This document shows, piece by piece, positions 9,168 to 64,000 of a DNA stretch of 64,000 nt. How positions within the stretch are numbered: position 1 is the stretch's first letter; each line of letters starts with the position of its first letter. The notes beneath the pieces were generated by a model. The model ran no database searches and was not told where the DNA came from. It was given only the letters and a program-made list of their open reading frames with translations. The stretch spans positions 2,509,080-2,573,079 of the forward strand of contig NZ_NKFP01000006.1 in assembly GCF_002215035.1 (NCBI RefSeq), in the 5' to 3' direction. The stretch is from Leptolyngbya ohadii IS1. Its GTDB lineage: Bacteria; Cyanobacteriota; Cyanobacteriia; Elainellales; Elainellaceae. Both the position numbers and the translations under genes were made by a program.

Positions 9168-9695
9168 ATGATCGGAAATCCGGATTTCTTGACAGGTAGA
9201 GGGCAGGATCAGGCTCCCGAACTTCAGGAGTTAGAAAGCCCTGAAGGTGAGCTACATCTACGTTTCCTGATCAGCTCAGGGGCAGAATTTGCCTTGCCTG
9301 CAACGGGAATTCGAGAAGTAATTGAGGCTCCTCCCGATCGAATTACACCCATTCCCAATGTTTCTCCTTTACTATTAGGAACACTCAATATCCGGGGTCG
9401 CGTCATTTGGGTGGCGGATTTGGGGCAATTTCTGGGTGATTCCACCTCACTCAATACCGATCGCACCGAGATTTCCGTCATTGCCGTGGAGGATCAAGAT
9501 GCCATGTTGGGGTTGGCAGTCGATCGCATTATTGGAATGGACTGGCTGGACATCGACGAGATTCACATGCCCAGCAACCTGCCCGACGGTATGGCTCCCT
9601 TTCTACGGGGCGAGTGGGCGATCGATGGGGCAGACCACAGCCTCAAGCTTTTAGATCAGGTCGCAATTTTACGATCGGCGAGATGGGCGGCATAA
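9168..9695 (+). CDS. hmpC: CheW-like adaptor HmpC/PilI
   Basis: A 175-residue CheW-domain protein that would link the MCP HmpD to the histidine kinase HmpE. The CheW fold is visible from about residue 25: LHLRFLISSGAEFALPATGIREVIE, then ITPIPNVSPLLLGTLNIRGRVIWVADLG and a second half with VIAVEDQDAMLGLAVDRI. The first 25 residues are a short acidic extension. The assigned start is the ATG at 9168 with no obvious Shine-Dalgarno sequence. The gene sits 66 bases before hmpD, matching the gene order of hmp and pil chemotaxis loci in other cyanobacteria. Confidence 0.88.
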   Translation: MIGNPDFLTGRGQDQAPELQELESPEGELHLRFLISSGAEFALPATGIREVIEAPPDRITPIPNVSPLLLGTLNIRGRVIWVADLGQFLGDSTSLNTDRTEISVIAVEDQDAMLGLAVDRIIGMDWLDIDEIHMPSNLPDGMAPFLRGEWAIDGADHSLKLLDQVAILRSARWAA

Positions 9696-39864: not shown

Positions 39865-40178
39865 TTAGCTCAGTCGTGGGCGAAGGTCAGTACCAGGGAA
39901 TAATTCCAGCAAAGGCAAATGCGGTCAATGCTGGCAAGAACTTGCCTCAGAGGGAGAACTCCATCAAGCGATGAACCTATGGGTCTGTTGTGACAATCTT
40001 CCTCGATCAGGTGCTGATAGGCTTTTATTCGTGTTTCAAACCTGTGTCTTAACCTTGTGTTCCACTCCTTTAAGTCGCAACACTTCGAGCCTGTGAATGA
40101 CTTAAACTCTGCCACACCTTCCATTCTGTTGTCCCGATCGTCGTCGGTTGCTTCGCAGTTTCCCGTGGGGGAAATCGC

Positions 40179-41732
40179 ATGGAGGCAAGCCCTGTGATGA
40201 TAGCAGATGCTAATGTCGGGCGAGTTTTACGCGATCGGTACCACCTGCGCCAGCTTCTTGGTCAAGGATCAATGGGGCGAGTCTATGGAGCCGATGATGA
40301 AGCGCTTGGCGGCATTCCCGTTGCAATTAAATTCCTTTCCCAGGCGCTACTGAATGAGCGAATGCGCGAGCGGTTTGAGCGGGAAGCAAAAACCTGTGCC
40401 CAGCTGGGGCAGCGCAGTATTCATATTGTTCGCGTGACGGATTACGGCGTTGATGATGAGGGGATTCCCTTTTACGTAATGGAATATCTGCGGGGTCAAA
40501 ATCTCAGCGATCTCATCCTGCAACAAAGCCCGGAGCTGCCTCGCTTCCTGTACCGCATCAAGCAAATTTGCCTAGGACTCCAGTGTGCCCACCGGGGAAT
40601 CCAGGTCGAAGGAAAGATTTGCCCGATCGTCCACCGGGATATCAAACCCAGTAATATCCTGGTCAGCCAGAATGAGAGCCTGGGCGAGCTGGTTAAGATC
40701 CTAGATTTTGGCGTGGCTAAAGTGTTACAGCCGGAGGGGCACCACACCAACTGCTTCATGGGCACCCTTGCCTATGCCTCACCGGAGCAAATGGAGGGGC
40801 GCGAACTGGATGCCCGCTCAGACATCTACAGCCTCGGCGTGATGATGTTTCAGATGCTGACGGGCAAGATGCCGCTAAATGTAGAAACCCATTCGTTTGG
40901 TGGCTGGTACAAAGCGCATCATTTTCAAAAGCCGCAGCCCGTCTCGACTGTGAATCCCAACCTCAGGGTGCCCAAAATCCTTGAGAATCTGGTGATGAGC
41001 TGTCTGGAGAAATCACCGACCGATCGCCCGCAGTCGGTAAGCGAAATTTTGGGTACGCTGGAACCCCTAGAAGAACGATTTGGCACCGGGCTTCAGGTGG
41101 CACAGCGCATTAAAGCTTCCCTCTCCCGCCTGCCCGTCACGGCTGGACCCAAAAACCTGAGTCTGGTTGGGGGCGATGAAATTCACCGACTGGCAACCTG
41201 GCCCTCCCAGATGCCGATCGCGGAAATTGTGTTTCCCAAGCCGCTGCAAACCAGCCAGGGACTGATGCCGATGTTGTGGGTCATGCTGCCCCGCATTGAG
41301 ATTCTCAAGCGAGTAACGTGCAGCCGCTACAATCAGTTTCTCTTTCTGGAAATGCCTCACCCGATGCTGCTTTGGCTGACGGTGCTGTACAACCGTGGCT
41401 ACGATCCGCGCTGGCTCCCCTGCTATCTCGATCTCAGAAGCACTCCTGGACGACAGATGGCAACTCTGCTCGGCGCAACCGGACATTACCGGATTTTGTT
41501 CTTTGCCCAGGAAGAGCCTCAGCGCTGCGCCAGTGTGCAAAACGTGACGATCGCGCCTGCTCAGTGTCAGCTTTTAAACGACTGGGCAATGGTAGGGCAA
41601 TCCTCGCGGCTGCCGCCCAATCCAACCTTGAGCAAAGACTTACTGAAGCAGGAACTTGAAAAAATCAAGCCGCAGATTTTGCGAAAGCTAGAAGCCCTCT
41701 ACAGCAGTGGTTCAACGGCTTTTCATTTTTAG
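40179..41732 (+). CDS. Ser/Thr protein kinase with cyanobacterial C-terminal domain
   Basis: A 517-residue Hanks-type kinase. Present are the glycine loop LGQGSMGRV (28-36), Lys51 in VAIK, catalytic Asp154 in HRDIKPSN, Asp176 in DFG and a SPE segment in place of APE, so it should be active. Residues about 330-517 form a further domain with no transmembrane helix or WD repeat; I recognise it as occurring after kinases in cyanobacteria, but its function is not known. Start choice is uncertain: the ATG at 40179 follows GGGGGAAA, but a GGAGG at 40182 sits 8 bases before a GTG at 40194 with an ATG right after. Substrates are unknown. Confidence 0.88.
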   Translation: MEASPVMIADANVGRVLRDRYHLRQLLGQGSMGRVYGADDEALGGIPVAIKFLSQALLNERMRERFEREAKTCAQLGQRSIHIVRVTDYGVDDEGIPFYVMEYLRGQNLSDLILQQSPELPRFLYRIKQICLGLQCAHRGIQVEGKICPIVHRDIKPSNILVSQNESLGELVKILDFGVAKVLQPEGHHTNCFMGTLAYASPEQMEGRELDARSDIYSLGVMMFQMLTGKMPLNVETHSFGGWYKAHHFQKPQPVSTVNPNLRVPKILENLVMSCLEKSPTDRPQSVSEILGTLEPLEERFGTGLQVAQRIKASLSRLPVTAGPKNLSLVGGDEIHRLATWPSQMPIAEIVFPKPLQTSQGLMPMLWVMLPRIEILKRVTCSRYNQFLFLEMPHPMLLWLTVLYNRGYDPRWLPCYLDLRSTPGRQMATLLGATGHYRILFFAQEEPQRCASVQNVTIAPAQCQLLNDWAMVGQSSRLPPNPTLSKDLLKQELEKIKPQILRKLEALYSSGSTAFHF

Positions 41733-60053: not shown

Positions 60054-60731
60054 CTAATTAAGCTGCTTGAGACGATAACCTAAGCCATGCACGGTTTCAA
60101 CCAGGTCTTCCGGTGCGCCTGCGGCTTTTAGCTTGTTCCGCAAGAATTTGATGTGGGATTTAACCGTCTCCTCGCTAGGCGGATTTTCTAACGACCAGAT
60201 GCGATCGATAATGCCAGTCCGACTCAGCACTCGCCGACCGCTCGACATTAGCAGTTCTAGCAGGGCAAATTCCTTCGGCGTCAGGGAAACGGGCTGACGA
60301 TCGAAAAACACTTCGTAGGTGCTGGGATTGAGGTGAAGATTACCCCAGCTTAGCTCACCTGCCATTCCACTATTCCCGCGCCGCAGCAGTGCCCGAACTC
60401 GCGCCAGAAACTCCTGAAGGTCAAAGGGTTTCACCATGTAGTCGTCTGCACCCGCATCCAGTCCCGTAATTCGATCGGCGATCGTGTCTCGTGCCGTTAG
60501 CATCAGCACCGGAAGACTGAAATGATGATCGCGCAATCTTTGGCAGAGGCGAATCCCGTCCAGTTTGGGCAGCGTAACGTCCAGTACCAGCAGGTCATAG
60601 GCGATCGATTCCAGCCAGTGCCAGGCAGTTTCTCCGTCCTGAAGCACATCAACCCCATACTGAGCATCCGTTAATGCCTCAGCGACGACTTCTGCAAGCT
60701 GCCCATCATCTTCAACGACTAAGATTCGCAT
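60054..60731 (-). CDS. OmpR/PhoB-type response regulator
   Basis: A 225-residue regulator: a receiver domain (1-115) with Asp8/Asp9-type acidic pair (VVEDDG), phospho-acceptor Asp51 in VLDVTLPKLDG and Lys in VKPFDL, followed by a winged-helix DNA-binding domain (about 127-222; VSLTPKEFALLELLM, EETVKSHIKFLRNKL). It is complete and should be a transcription factor. It is divergent from the sensor kinase at 60967, which may be its partner; the start-to-start gap of 235 bases holds a G-rich repeat. Target genes are unknown. Confidence 0.92.
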   Translation of the reverse strand: MRILVVEDDGQLAEVVAEALTDAQYGVDVLQDGETAWHWLESIAYDLLVLDVTLPKLDGIRLCQRLRDHHFSLPVLMLTARDTIADRITGLDAGADDYMVKPFDLQEFLARVRALLRRGNSGMAGELSWGNLHLNPSTYEVFFDRQPVSLTPKEFALLELLMSSGRRVLSRTGIIDRIWSLENPPSEETVKSHIKFLRNKLKAAGAPEDLVETVHGLGYRLKQLN

Positions 60732-60966: not shown

Positions 60967-62376
60967 ATGAACGGGAAGCTGGGTGGGAAAAGATGGACAT
61001 TTGCGGCTGGATTTGTGGCGATTGTTACGCTGATGGGATTGACGAATTGGACATCTTATCAGAATGCAAAGCAGTTAATTGAGAGTACGGATGAGTCAAA
61101 GCAGACTTACGAAGTTATCAAAAGCCTTGTGGATATTTCTGCGACGATGACGATCGCCGAATCGGGACGACGTGGATATATTTACATGGGCGATCGCAAG
61201 GAATATTTGCGTTATCAGAAAGCGGTTAAAGAGATTGCGCCAAAAATACAGCTTCTTCAGCGGCAGCTTCAGCAGAGCGGTGAACAAACGGATCAGTTTG
61301 AACGGCTTCAACAGTTGCTCGATCGCCGTATTGCCCTGTTAGAACAATCTATTCAGCTTTATCAGCAGCAGCCGGACGATCGTGCCCTGCAAGCCCAACT
61401 AACGGAGGAAAGTATTCAGCTTCGGGAGCAGATCCTATTGCTGATGGATCAGATGCAGGCTCAGGAAGAACGACTTTTGCAGCAGTGGCTTAGCCAATCT
61501 CAGGTGAATATTCGCAATCGCTATTGGATTGAATTCCTGATTGGTTTTTCTAGTTTTGCGATCTTTCTGGGCTTTGTACTTCTGCTTTACTACGAATATA
61601 TGCAGCGGCAGCAGGCAGAAACGCTGCGATCGAACCTATTGAAGGAAAAGGAATTGAGCGATCTCAAACTCAGATTCTTTTCAATGGTGTCCCACGAATT
61701 TCGCACGCCGCTCACCGTGATTCTTGGGTCAGCCCAGCTCATGCGCGACAATGAATCCTCCTGGAACAAGGAGCGTCGGCAGAAAAATCTGAAGCGAATC
61801 CAATCTTCTGCCAATTTAATGAAGCAAATGCTGGTGGATATTTTGACCCTTACCAGAGCGGAAGCGGGCAAACTGGAGTTTAATCCGCAGCCGATCGATC
61901 TGGAGGCATTCTGTCTGAATCTTGTTGAAGAAATTCAGCTTTCAATGCAATCGTCCCACCCAATTCAAATTATCAGTCAGGGAAGCCAGCGATACGCATT
62001 CTTAGACGAAAAGCTGCTTTACTCCATTCTCAGTAATCTGCTCTCCAACGCCATCAAATACTCTAATCCCAATTCCCCGATCGATCTTTGGTTGGATTGC
62101 CAGCCCGACCAGACCATCCTGCAAGTCAAGGACAACGGAACTGGAATTTCAGACATCGATCGATCGCACCTGTTTGAAGCCTTCTATCGCGGACAAAACA
62201 GCAGCGGCATCAGCGGCAGCGGACTCGGCTTAGCGGTCGTTAAACAGTGCGTCGATCTGCACCAGGGCAAAATCACCCTACAAAGCAGCCCCCCTCAATC
62301 GGTTGCTTCTCAGTTGTCCGAAGGGGTAATCGACCCTTTTCTCGACGGAAATAGAGACAGCAAAGCTGGGTGGTAG
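60967..62376 (+). CDS. Sensor histidine kinase, CHASE3-like, with repeat-encoded C-terminus
   Basis: A 469-residue membrane kinase. A membrane helix (about 9-27), an extracytoplasmic helical domain of CHASE3 type (about 30-185) and a second helix (about 190-210) precede the HisKA domain with His243 in MVSHEFRTPLT, and an HATPase domain with NLLSNAIKY, DNGTGIS and GSGLGLAVV. The catalytic core ends near residue 438. The last 25 or so residues (from about 445, ending SKAGW) are encoded inside the left arm of the long inverted repeat that starts at 62300. Probably partnered with the divergent OmpR regulator. The signal is unknown. Confidence 0.88.
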   Translation: MNGKLGGKRWTFAAGFVAIVTLMGLTNWTSYQNAKQLIESTDESKQTYEVIKSLVDISATMTIAESGRRGYIYMGDRKEYLRYQKAVKEIAPKIQLLQRQLQQSGEQTDQFERLQQLLDRRIALLEQSIQLYQQQPDDRALQAQLTEESIQLREQILLLMDQMQAQEERLLQQWLSQSQVNIRNRYWIEFLIGFSSFAIFLGFVLLLYYEYMQRQQAETLRSNLLKEKELSDLKLRFFSMVSHEFRTPLTVILGSAQLMRDNESSWNKERRQKNLKRIQSSANLMKQMLVDILTLTRAEAGKLEFNPQPIDLEAFCLNLVEEIQLSMQSSHPIQIISQGSQRYAFLDEKLLYSILSNLLSNAIKYSNPNSPIDLWLDCQPDQTILQVKDNGTGISDIDRSHLFEAFYRGQNSSGISGSGLGLAVVKQCVDLHQGKITLQSSPPQSVASQLSEGVIDPFLDGNRDSKAGW

Positions 62377-62615
62377 AACACCGGATGATCGTACAATGGA
62401 TAATCGTGCAATGAATAACAAACACAACAGGGATGCGTCGTCGTCTCAACCTGTTTGCTATTTCACACGCATTGAACAAGCTCACTTCAAACGTTCACTG
62501 CAAATGAACGGCTGATATGAACCGTTAACATAAACGACTGATTTGTCAAAAATTGGTAGTTTGCTTTGCCCTGATTTCAGGTTGCTGTCAGGTTGTTTTT
62601 AACTTGCCCGATTGG
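62300..62615 (+). repeat. Long inverted repeat, left arm
   Basis: A 316-base arm whose reverse complement is the sequence 62680-63006. The match is continuous over most of its length (for example 62401-62580 matches with very few changes). Differences I found: several bases in 62314-62337, one base at 62391 and an 11-base length difference near the inner end. The outer part encodes the end of the kinase at 60967; the rest is non-coding. Confidence 0.92.
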
Positions 62616-62679
62616 TCATTGTGAAACAACTGCGACTCTACCCTGAAAGTTCTGTGAATTCACCGATCGCAGTTGATGT
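62616..62679. other. Spacer of the long inverted repeat with inner palindrome
   Basis: A 64-base spacer containing CAACTGCGA near 62627 and TCGCAGTTG near 62667, an inner 9-base inverted pair. The whole 62300-63006 segment could thus fold as one cruciform or as a long RNA hairpin if transcribed. Confidence 0.7.
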
Positions 62680-63006
62680 CCAATCGGGCAAGTTAAAAAC
62701 AACCTGAAAACAACCTGACAGCAACCTGAAATCAGGGCAAAGCAAACTACCAATTTTTGACAAATCAGTCGTTTATGTTAACGGTTCATATCAGCCGTTC
62801 ATTTGCAGTGAACGTTTGAAGTGAGCTTGTTCAATGCGTGTGAAATAGCAAACAGGTTGAGACGACGACGCATCCCTGTTGTGTTTGTTATTCATTGCAC
62901 GATTATCCATTGCACGATCATCCGGTGTTCTACCACCCAGCTTTGCTGTCTCTATTTCCGTCGAGAAAAGAGACGATAACCCCTTCGGAGAACTGCAAAG
63001 CAACCG
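62680..63006 (-). repeat. Long inverted repeat, right arm
   Basis: A 327-base arm, the reverse complement of 62300-62615, with an extra 11-base unit in a CAACCTGA-type run (62702-62730). Its outer end lies 54 bases before the start of the beta-helix gene at 63060. Read on the minus strand, it also encodes a tail ending SKAGW, like the end of the kinase. Confidence 0.92.
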
Positions 63007-63059
63007 CATTCTGGGCGGTGAGTGTGACCCGGTGAGTGCCAACCATCAGAGGAGACTCC

Positions 63060-64000
63060 ATGTCGAATATGATTACCGTCACCACCACTGCGGACAGCGG
63101 TGCGGGTTCTCTGCGGGCAGCAATTGCTGCGGCAACTCCTGGAAGCACAATTCAGTTTGCCTCTAGCCTGGCAGGACAGACGATTACGCTCACAGGCGGG
63201 CAGCTTCAGATTCCTCCCGGCAAAAATCTCACGATCGATGGCGGCAGTGCGCCGGGACTAAAGATTAGCGGCAACAATGCCTCTCGGATTTTCTTTGTTA
63301 ATTCCAATCAGGATTTTCCGACTACTGTTTCGTTCAAAAACCTCAGCCTGATCAACGGTCGAACCAATGAGCAGGGGGGCGCAATCCGGGGTGAACACAG
63401 GGCAACTATCAGCGTTGAAAATGTCAGCTTCCAGAACAACGTTGCCGATCGCGGGGGCGGTGCAATCTTTGCACCCTGGGAAAATAACCTGACCGTGATT
63501 AATTCCCAGTTCGATCGCAATAAGGCAACTGCGGGCAACGATGAACGGGGGGCAGGGGCGATCGCCTTTGTCAGTCCCGGCAATTTCATTGTGCGAAACA
63601 GCAGTTTTACCAATAACGAGGGCATCAACGGCGGCGCAATCAACAGCCTCAACGGAAAGCTGACGATCGAAAATTCTCGCTTTATCAACAACAGCACGCT
63701 GGCTGCCAGCTACGCCAACGGTCAGCAAAATCCCGATCTGCGCGGCTATGGGGGAGCGCTCTACACCGATCGCGCCAGCGGCACCAGCGAACCCTCCGGA
63801 ACCATCCGAATTGTTGGTAGCCTGTTTGAAGGCAACAAGGGTAAGGCAGAGGGCGGCGCAGCCTATCTGTACACCGGAACCCAGGATAACATCATCATCG
63901 ATCGCACTACCTTTAAAGACAACGAAGTGCAGCCCCTTCCCCAGGGCAATGGCGGCAATGGCGGCGGCGTCGTAGTGATGAGCAACGGTGACAACCGGGG
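63060..64000 (+). CDS. Parallel beta-helix surface/secreted protein (3' truncated by window edge)
   Basis: An open frame from the ATG at 63060 to the last base (at least 313 residues). AGAGGAG precedes it by about 6 bases. There is no signal peptide. The opening MITVTTTADSGAGSLRAAIAAA is the typical start of cyanobacterial polymorphic outer-membrane/beta-helix proteins, and repeated GGAI and FxxNxA-type motifs (VSFQNNVADRGGGAIF, SFTNNEGINGGAI, TFKDNE) form a right-handed helix. Such proteins often end with calcium-binding repeats and leave by type I secretion, but that part is outside the window. The promoter would lie in or near the right arm of the inverted repeat. Confidence 0.85.
   Translation, partial: MSNMITVTTTADSGAGSLRAAIAAATPGSTIQFASSLAGQTITLTGGQLQIPPGKNLTIDGGSAPGLKISGNNASRIFFVNSNQDFPTTVSFKNLSLINGRTNEQGGAIRGEHRATISVENVSFQNNVADRGGGAIFAPWENNLTVINSQFDRNKATAGNDERGAGAIAFVSPGNFIVRNSSFTNNEGINGGAINSLNGKLTIENSRFINNSTLAASYANGQQNPDLRGYGGALYTDRASGTSEPSGTIRIVGSLFEGNKGKAEGGAAYLYTGTQDNIIIDRTTFKDNEVQPLPQGNGGNGGGVVVMSNGDNR

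What the first reader, a model, noticed from the sequence alone, without database searches (positions are those of the whole stretch)
62300..63006. Near-perfect 320-bp inverted repeat joining the end of a kinase gene to the leader of a beta-helix gene
The two arms match over more than 310 bases with a 64-base spacer that contains its own 9-base inverted pair. The arms are not identical: they differ by scattered bases and by one extra 11-base unit, which argues against a simple fold-back assembly artefact and for an inverted duplication that has diverged. The duplicated DNA encodes the last residues of one protein and the upstream region of another. Possible roles: a mobile or foldback element, a recombination site that inverts a segment, or a duplicated regulatory leader.
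Basis: partly seen in the sequence, partly recalled or inferred. Interest (0 to 1): 0.75.

Follow-up and report, generated by a model that had tools for sequence, protein, structure and literature searches.

The report
Inverted copy of a gene leader
In this cyanobacterium a stretch of about 290 bases in front of one gene was copied backwards over the end of the neighbouring sensor-kinase gene, apparently by a replication slip between two short scattered repeats; it is a well-preserved scar of a known kind of mutation, not a new mobile element.

Summary
The inverted repeat is real (arms 62300-62615 and 62680-63006). It is not a 707-bp mobile element. In the one other genome of the genus found (G001, FACHB-502), the kinase and beta-helix genes are neighbours too. 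The spacer and right arm are there once, in the same order and orientation; the left arm is not. So the right arm is the original leader and the left arm a derived inverted copy. It stands where the relative has the 3' end of the kinase gene; the kinase lacks the end of its ATPase domain.

The outer 33 bp of each arm is a dispersed 27-nt module sitting in CG^ATCG (core of HIP1), the insertion site published for the cyanobacterial repeat SDR5. The two outer copies differ about as much as two random copies among 66 collected, while the next ~250 bp differ by one base. The inner end lies beside a 9-bp hairpin.

Best explanation: a two-step template switch (or gene conversion), anchored outside by two older inverted SDR-type repeats and inside by the hairpin. 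A known kind of mutation; the clear polarity and the SDR anchors are the interesting part. No function is shown. Long reads were not available.

The parts
60967..62376 (+). Sensor histidine kinase (CHASE3, HisKA, HATPase_c); its 3' end is encoded by the left arm
   Evidence: Pfam: HATPase_c matched only to 2-99/111, against 2-109/111 in the G001 orthologue; 71% identity to G001
62300..62332 (+). Outer end of left arm: 27-nt SDR-type module 62302-62328 between CG and ATCG, read through in the kinase frame
62336..62615 (-). Left arm interior: inverted copy of the beta-helix leader, the derived copy
   Evidence: 62336-62618 matches the G001 intergenic only as reverse complement (score 94.5, best of 200 shuffles 16.9); forward score 14.1, shuffles up to 18.5
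62619..62675 (+). Spacer with 9-bp stem 62627-62635 / 62667-62675, ancestral orientation
   Evidence: Forward match to G001 21.0, best shuffle 13.0; reverse 8.0; hairpin z -2.75 in the window, -0.82 in G001
62680..62970 (+). Right arm interior: original leader of the beta-helix gene
   Evidence: 62676-62970 forward match to G001 94.5, best shuffle 16.0
62700..62732 (+). Three 11-bp tandem units CAACCTGANNN; the left arm has two
   Evidence: (D4); at up to 1 mismatch the pair of units has 3 matches in G000, all in these arms, and 0 in G001 (reversed control: 0 and 1)
62978..63004 (-). Outer end of right arm: 27-nt SDR-type module; G001 has an empty CGATCG site here
63060..64000 (+). Beta-helix/RTX-type gene, runs off the window
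   Evidence: Chlam_PMP repeat in the window part; the G001 orthologue (L010:9581, 747 aa) has Chlam_PMP and an RTX repeat
60054..60731 (-). Divergent response regulator (receiver plus OmpR-type C-terminal domain) next to the kinase
   Evidence: Response_reg and Trans_reg_C

Best explanation
The structure is the scar of one local inverted duplication. In the lineage of this strain a 27-nt SDR-type repeat sat at the 3' end of the kinase gene, and another sat in opposite orientation in the beta-helix leader. A growing DNA strand folded back at the 9-bp hairpin, copied the leader outwards, reached the leader's SDR, and rejoined the original template at the kinase's SDR (or the same two switches in reverse order, or a gene conversion between the two). 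The product is an inverted copy of the leader in place of the kinase end and the old intergenic sequence. Shown: which arm is ancestral (by one relative), the dispersed-repeat identity of both outer ends, the 27-bp empty site in the relative's leader, and a kinase that lacks the usual end. Inferred: the order of steps, that the kinase SDR was there before the duplication, and the replication mechanism. No function of the repeat is shown; the likely effect is an impaired or altered kinase and a possible second leader copy pointing back into it.
For: Polarity: spacer and right arm match the G001 intergenic forward and in order, the left arm only inverted. Both outer ends are a dispersed 27-nt module. 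The leader's module is absent from G001 with a gap of 27 nt at GACGAT^CGCA. The two modules differ at 4 of 27, like random pairs of the 66 copies collected from ten genomes (mean 4.7; 46% of pairs at 4 or fewer). The inner end lies beside a 9-bp stem. HATPase_c is matched to position 99 instead of 109, while 10 of 11 homologues examined end in a G-x-x-F-x-V-x-x-P strand. Precedent in E. coli: 22 of 90 sequenced novel junctions lie at REP palindromes (PMC3161906, section 13 read).
Against: Both modules share a T at position 16 that only 4 of the other 64 copies have, which hints that one may be a copy of the other. End-biased gene conversion inside an older inverted repeat would give a similar pattern of mismatches. 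Only one relative was available, so the ancestral kinase end of this lineage was not seen. The stem is not significant in G001 (z -0.82, 39 of 200 shuffles as good). A tract of about 290 nt is long for the classical short quasipalindrome mutation. No inverted pair longer than 59 nt was found at the other SDR loci looked at (67 loci, several overlapping, two of them this locus).
Confidence: 0.65

Rival explanations
1. Single-origin duplication with conversion: only the leader had an SDR; the whole right arm was duplicated inverted at a HIP1-like site in the kinase, and later conversion between the arms kept the interior identical while the ends drifted.
For: The two modules share T16, found in 4 of the other 64 copies. 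Homogenisation of inverted arms by template switching is described in yeast (PMC8604942, abstract and passages).
Against: Needs a second process to explain 6 of 36 mismatches outside against 1 of about 250 inside; the left module has the commonest base at positions 8 and 27 where the right one has not.
Confidence: 0.22
2. Foldback or MITE-like mobile element of 707 bp with 300-bp terminal repeats, inserted at the kinase end.
For: Long terminal inverted repeats with defined outer ends.
Against: Spacer and right arm are ancestral by G001; no further copy in the own genome; interior found in 2 of 60 genomes, the window's own and G001, there as a single arm.
Confidence: 0.03
3. Invertible switch: recombination between the arms flips the spacer and changes expression.
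For: The geometry permits RecA-type flipping of the spacer (inference).
Against: The spacer is in the ancestral orientation; no terminator-like site and only promoter matches near chance level (2 found, 1.0 expected) in 62200-63100. Recombinase genes and sites were not searched for.
Confidence: 0.04
4. Assembly artefact (fold-back read or mis-join).
For: Raw reads were not available, so it cannot be excluded directly.
Against: Arms differ by an 11-bp unit and by 6 of 36 outer bases; both flanks join the same neighbours as in G001; the contig is 4.26 Mb long.
Confidence: 0.04

Closest known systems
SDR5, small repeat module of cyanobacteria (Elhai et al. 2008, known to me here only through its citation in PMC4390886)
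   Different: The SDR5 sequence itself could not be compared; the 2008 paper is not held and was not read
Template-switch inverted duplications and REP junctions in E. coli (PMC3161906, passages and section 13)
   Same: Inverted copies; junctions with 3-30 bp of microhomology, and many junctions at short dispersed palindromic repeats
   Different: There the inverted duplications are 5.2-42.6 kb inside amplified regions; here about 290 bp in a chromosome
Quasipalindrome template switching (PMC8604942, passages; PMC7202029 seen in the search listing only)
   Same: Snap-back between short inverted repeats, two switches
   Different: The tract here is much longer than the arms of 16 bp and less named in the passages seen

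Membership tests
SDR5-type small dispersed repeat | Inserted between nt 3 and 4 of HIP1 (GCG^ATCGC) | tested here: met
   66 copies: C at -2 in 62, A, T, C, G at +1 to +4 in 61, 58, 54 and 59; joined flanks are CG plus ATCG in 39 and full GCGATCGC in 13. G at -1 was partly selected by the search pattern.
SDR5-type small dispersed repeat | Precise presence or absence between relatives | tested here: met
   Clean 27-nt empty sites in G001 for the leader copy and the XdhC-like gene copy L004; the L003 site has CGATCG in G001 but the net difference is 15 nt, and L006 was unresolved. So 2 clean of 4 tested.
SDR5-type small dispersed repeat | Sequence identity to published SDR5 | not testable with these tools
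   Paper not held; 0 papers of the library hold any of four core strings
Foldback/MITE mobile element | Several copies of the whole unit, with an empty target in relatives | tested here: not met
   No second copy; right arm and spacer present in G001
Template-switch inverted duplication | One ancestral arm, one derived inverted copy | tested here: met
   with one relative
Template-switch inverted duplication | Both junctions at short inverted homologies | tested here: inconclusive
   Outer: 27-nt module plus CG and ATCG flanks in both arms; inner: 9-bp stem. Present today, but the sequence before the event was not seen.
Template-switch inverted duplication | Formation during DNA synthesis | not testable with these tools
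   Needs an experiment

The most novel reading that the evidence does not exclude
HIP1-inserted 27-nt modules act as anchors for template switching in cyanobacteria, so that inverted pairs of them rewrite nearby gene ends and promoters; here one event both reshaped a sensor kinase and placed a copy of its neighbour's leader against it.
Probability: 0.35. Interest if true: 0.55.

Novelty: new member of a known kind. Interest (0 to 1): 0.36.

Why it matters
It is a well-resolved case in which the ancestral arm, the derived arm, the outer anchors and the inner hairpin can all be named. If such SDR pairs prove to be recurrent anchors, tiny cyanobacterial repeats would have a measurable role in rewiring gene ends. 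As a single case it is a mutation scar with a likely cost to one kinase.

Tried and rejected
Mobile element: rejected. Regulon motif: the 11-bp repeats looked like a response-regulator site, but at up to 1 mismatch the pair matches only this locus in G000 and nothing in G001, so I dropped it. An early idea that the kinase's lost end is still readable after 63006 was dropped after the G001 comparison. RNA families: 2 matches at E up to 1, MIR7996 (80.8 bits, cut-off 119), which I take for the long hairpin, and a chance-level snoRNA. AlphaFold2 model of the kinase (7 sequences): mean pLDDT 68.3, pTM 0.35, new tail residues 441-469 under 50 with no strand; no model of the G001 kinase was made as a control, so it proves nothing about function. 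SDR loci as sources of other inverted duplications: self-BLAST of 67 loci, several overlapping, reporting pairs of 40 nt or more; two of the loci were this locus, and the only others were three of 44, 51 and 59 nt. The genome scan for relatives with the kinase gave 3 loci, only FACHB-502 being close. The L006 empty-site test did not align orthologous sequence. In one search the stretch 63007-63059 scored 9.0, within the shuffles (up to 12.0), because the G001 stretch given ended at 9580; one search aligns that part.

Full report
Observation. The inverted repeat is present as described: 307 nt, 97% complementary without gaps, and with gaps 62300-62615 against 63006-62680. The loop is 64 bases and carries a 9-bp stem. 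At a minimum length of 40 nt the window shows no other inverted pair of comparable size. The 7.9-Mb genome has no further long copy; the four other matches of the 62200-63100 search are 30-37 nt long and fall on the outer ends of the arms.

Which arm is old. G001, the only other genome of the genus among the 60 searched, has the same gene order. Its contig length and coordinates fit record JACJNZ010000039.1, Cyanobacteria bacterium FACHB-502. There the kinase ends in the usual way and one leader lies before the beta-helix gene. Spacer (score 21.0, best of 200 shuffles 13.0) and right arm (94.5, best shuffle 16.0) align forward and in order with that intergenic region. The left arm aligns only as reverse complement (94.5), its forward score of 14.1 being within the shuffles (up to 18.5). 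So the left arm is a derived inverted copy, and the 707-bp unit did not arrive as a whole. This rests on one relative.

What the outer ends are. Each end is a copy of a dispersed module, commonest form GTTGCTTCGCAGTTCCCCGAAGGGGTA. A 26-nt core at up to 3 mismatches occurs 10 times in the own genome and 39 times in G001, and the reversed control pattern 0 times in both. A 24-nt core at up to 2 mismatches occurs in 10 of 98 genomes (the window's own and 97 others), control 0 in all. From the window and the loci fetched for these hits I collected 66 distinct copies from ten genomes, at up to 4 substitutions in the core. Duplicates and any copy within 40 nt of a locus end were left out by the script without being counted; copies with small internal indels were kept as they stand; weaker copies seen were not collected. 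The modules are preceded by CG and followed by ATCG: C at -2 in 62, A, T, C, G at +1 to +4 in 61, 58, 54 and 59 of 66. The joined flanks give CGATCG in 39 of 66. The G at -1 was partly selected by the pattern. [quoted passage not shown] That is the same site, so I call these SDR-type modules; identity in sequence with SDR5 was not testable. Empty sites in G001: clean 27-nt differences for the leader copy and for an XdhC-like gene copy (L004 against L093, net gap counted by eye). One further site (L003) has CGATCG in G001 but a net difference of 15 nt, and one (L006) was unresolved. So 2 of 4 are clean. A length of 27 nt keeps the reading frame; by my reading one of the six frames meets a TAA at its end.

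How the pieces fit. The outer 36 bp of the arms differ at 6 positions, the next ~250 bp at one, 62393. The two 27-nt modules differ at 4 positions; random pairs among the 66 copies differ at 4.7 on average (a few copies with indels raise this mean). This is what one expects if both modules were there before and only the DNA between module and hairpin was copied. At the inner end the copied tract stops next to CAACTGCGA...TCGCAGTTG. Folded as single-stranded DNA this region has z -2.75 (1 of 200 shuffles as good). The G001 counterpart also forms a stem, but not significantly (z -0.82, 39 of 200). A strand that snaps back at this stem, copies the leader outwards and rejoins the template at the other module yields the observed structure. 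The direction cannot be told. Against it: both modules share T16, found in 4 of the other 64 copies, so a single origin with conversion stays possible.

Consequences. The kinase keeps CHASE3, HisKA and most of HATPase_c, but the profile match stops at 99 of 111 instead of 109 in G001. Of 11 homologues examined (11 of the 42 further matches listed) 10 end in the usual last strand; the exception is L087. The new tail is predicted without structure, in a weak model without a control. Any promoter in the leader is now also present pointing into the kinase; the promoter scan is near chance level, so this is inference only.

Known or new. Inverted template switches, and rearrangement junctions at short palindromic repeats, are known from E. 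coli (PMC3161906: 22 of 90 sequenced novel junctions at REP; section 13 read; passages). Homogenisation of inverted arms by template switching is known from yeast (PMC8604942, passages). In the listings of my literature searches I saw no paper that links cyanobacterial SDR repeats to inverted duplications; most listed papers were not opened, and the library lacks most subscription papers.

Noticed in passing
window 40147-40173 (+): A third, more diverged copy of the 27-nt module, in TCG^ATCGC, directly before an ATG at 40179 that opens what I read as a Ser/Thr protein kinase-like frame (letters; no ORF or family call was made).
   Followed up: partly
L003, L004, L006 (own genome): Copies of the module lie inside open reading frames (metallophosphatase-like, XdhC-like and phytochrome-like by my reading), adding about nine residues.
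   Followed up: partly
L014 (G001): Two module copies side by side; the second starts in the flank of the first.
   Followed up: no
window 62830-62900: Block of about 60 bp in the leader that, by eye, is much better conserved with G001 than the rest of the intergenic region; possibly the promoter or operator of the beta-helix gene.
   Followed up: no
L087 (G028): A kinase homologue that also lacks the usual last strand, ending EKGQHSR.
   Followed up: no
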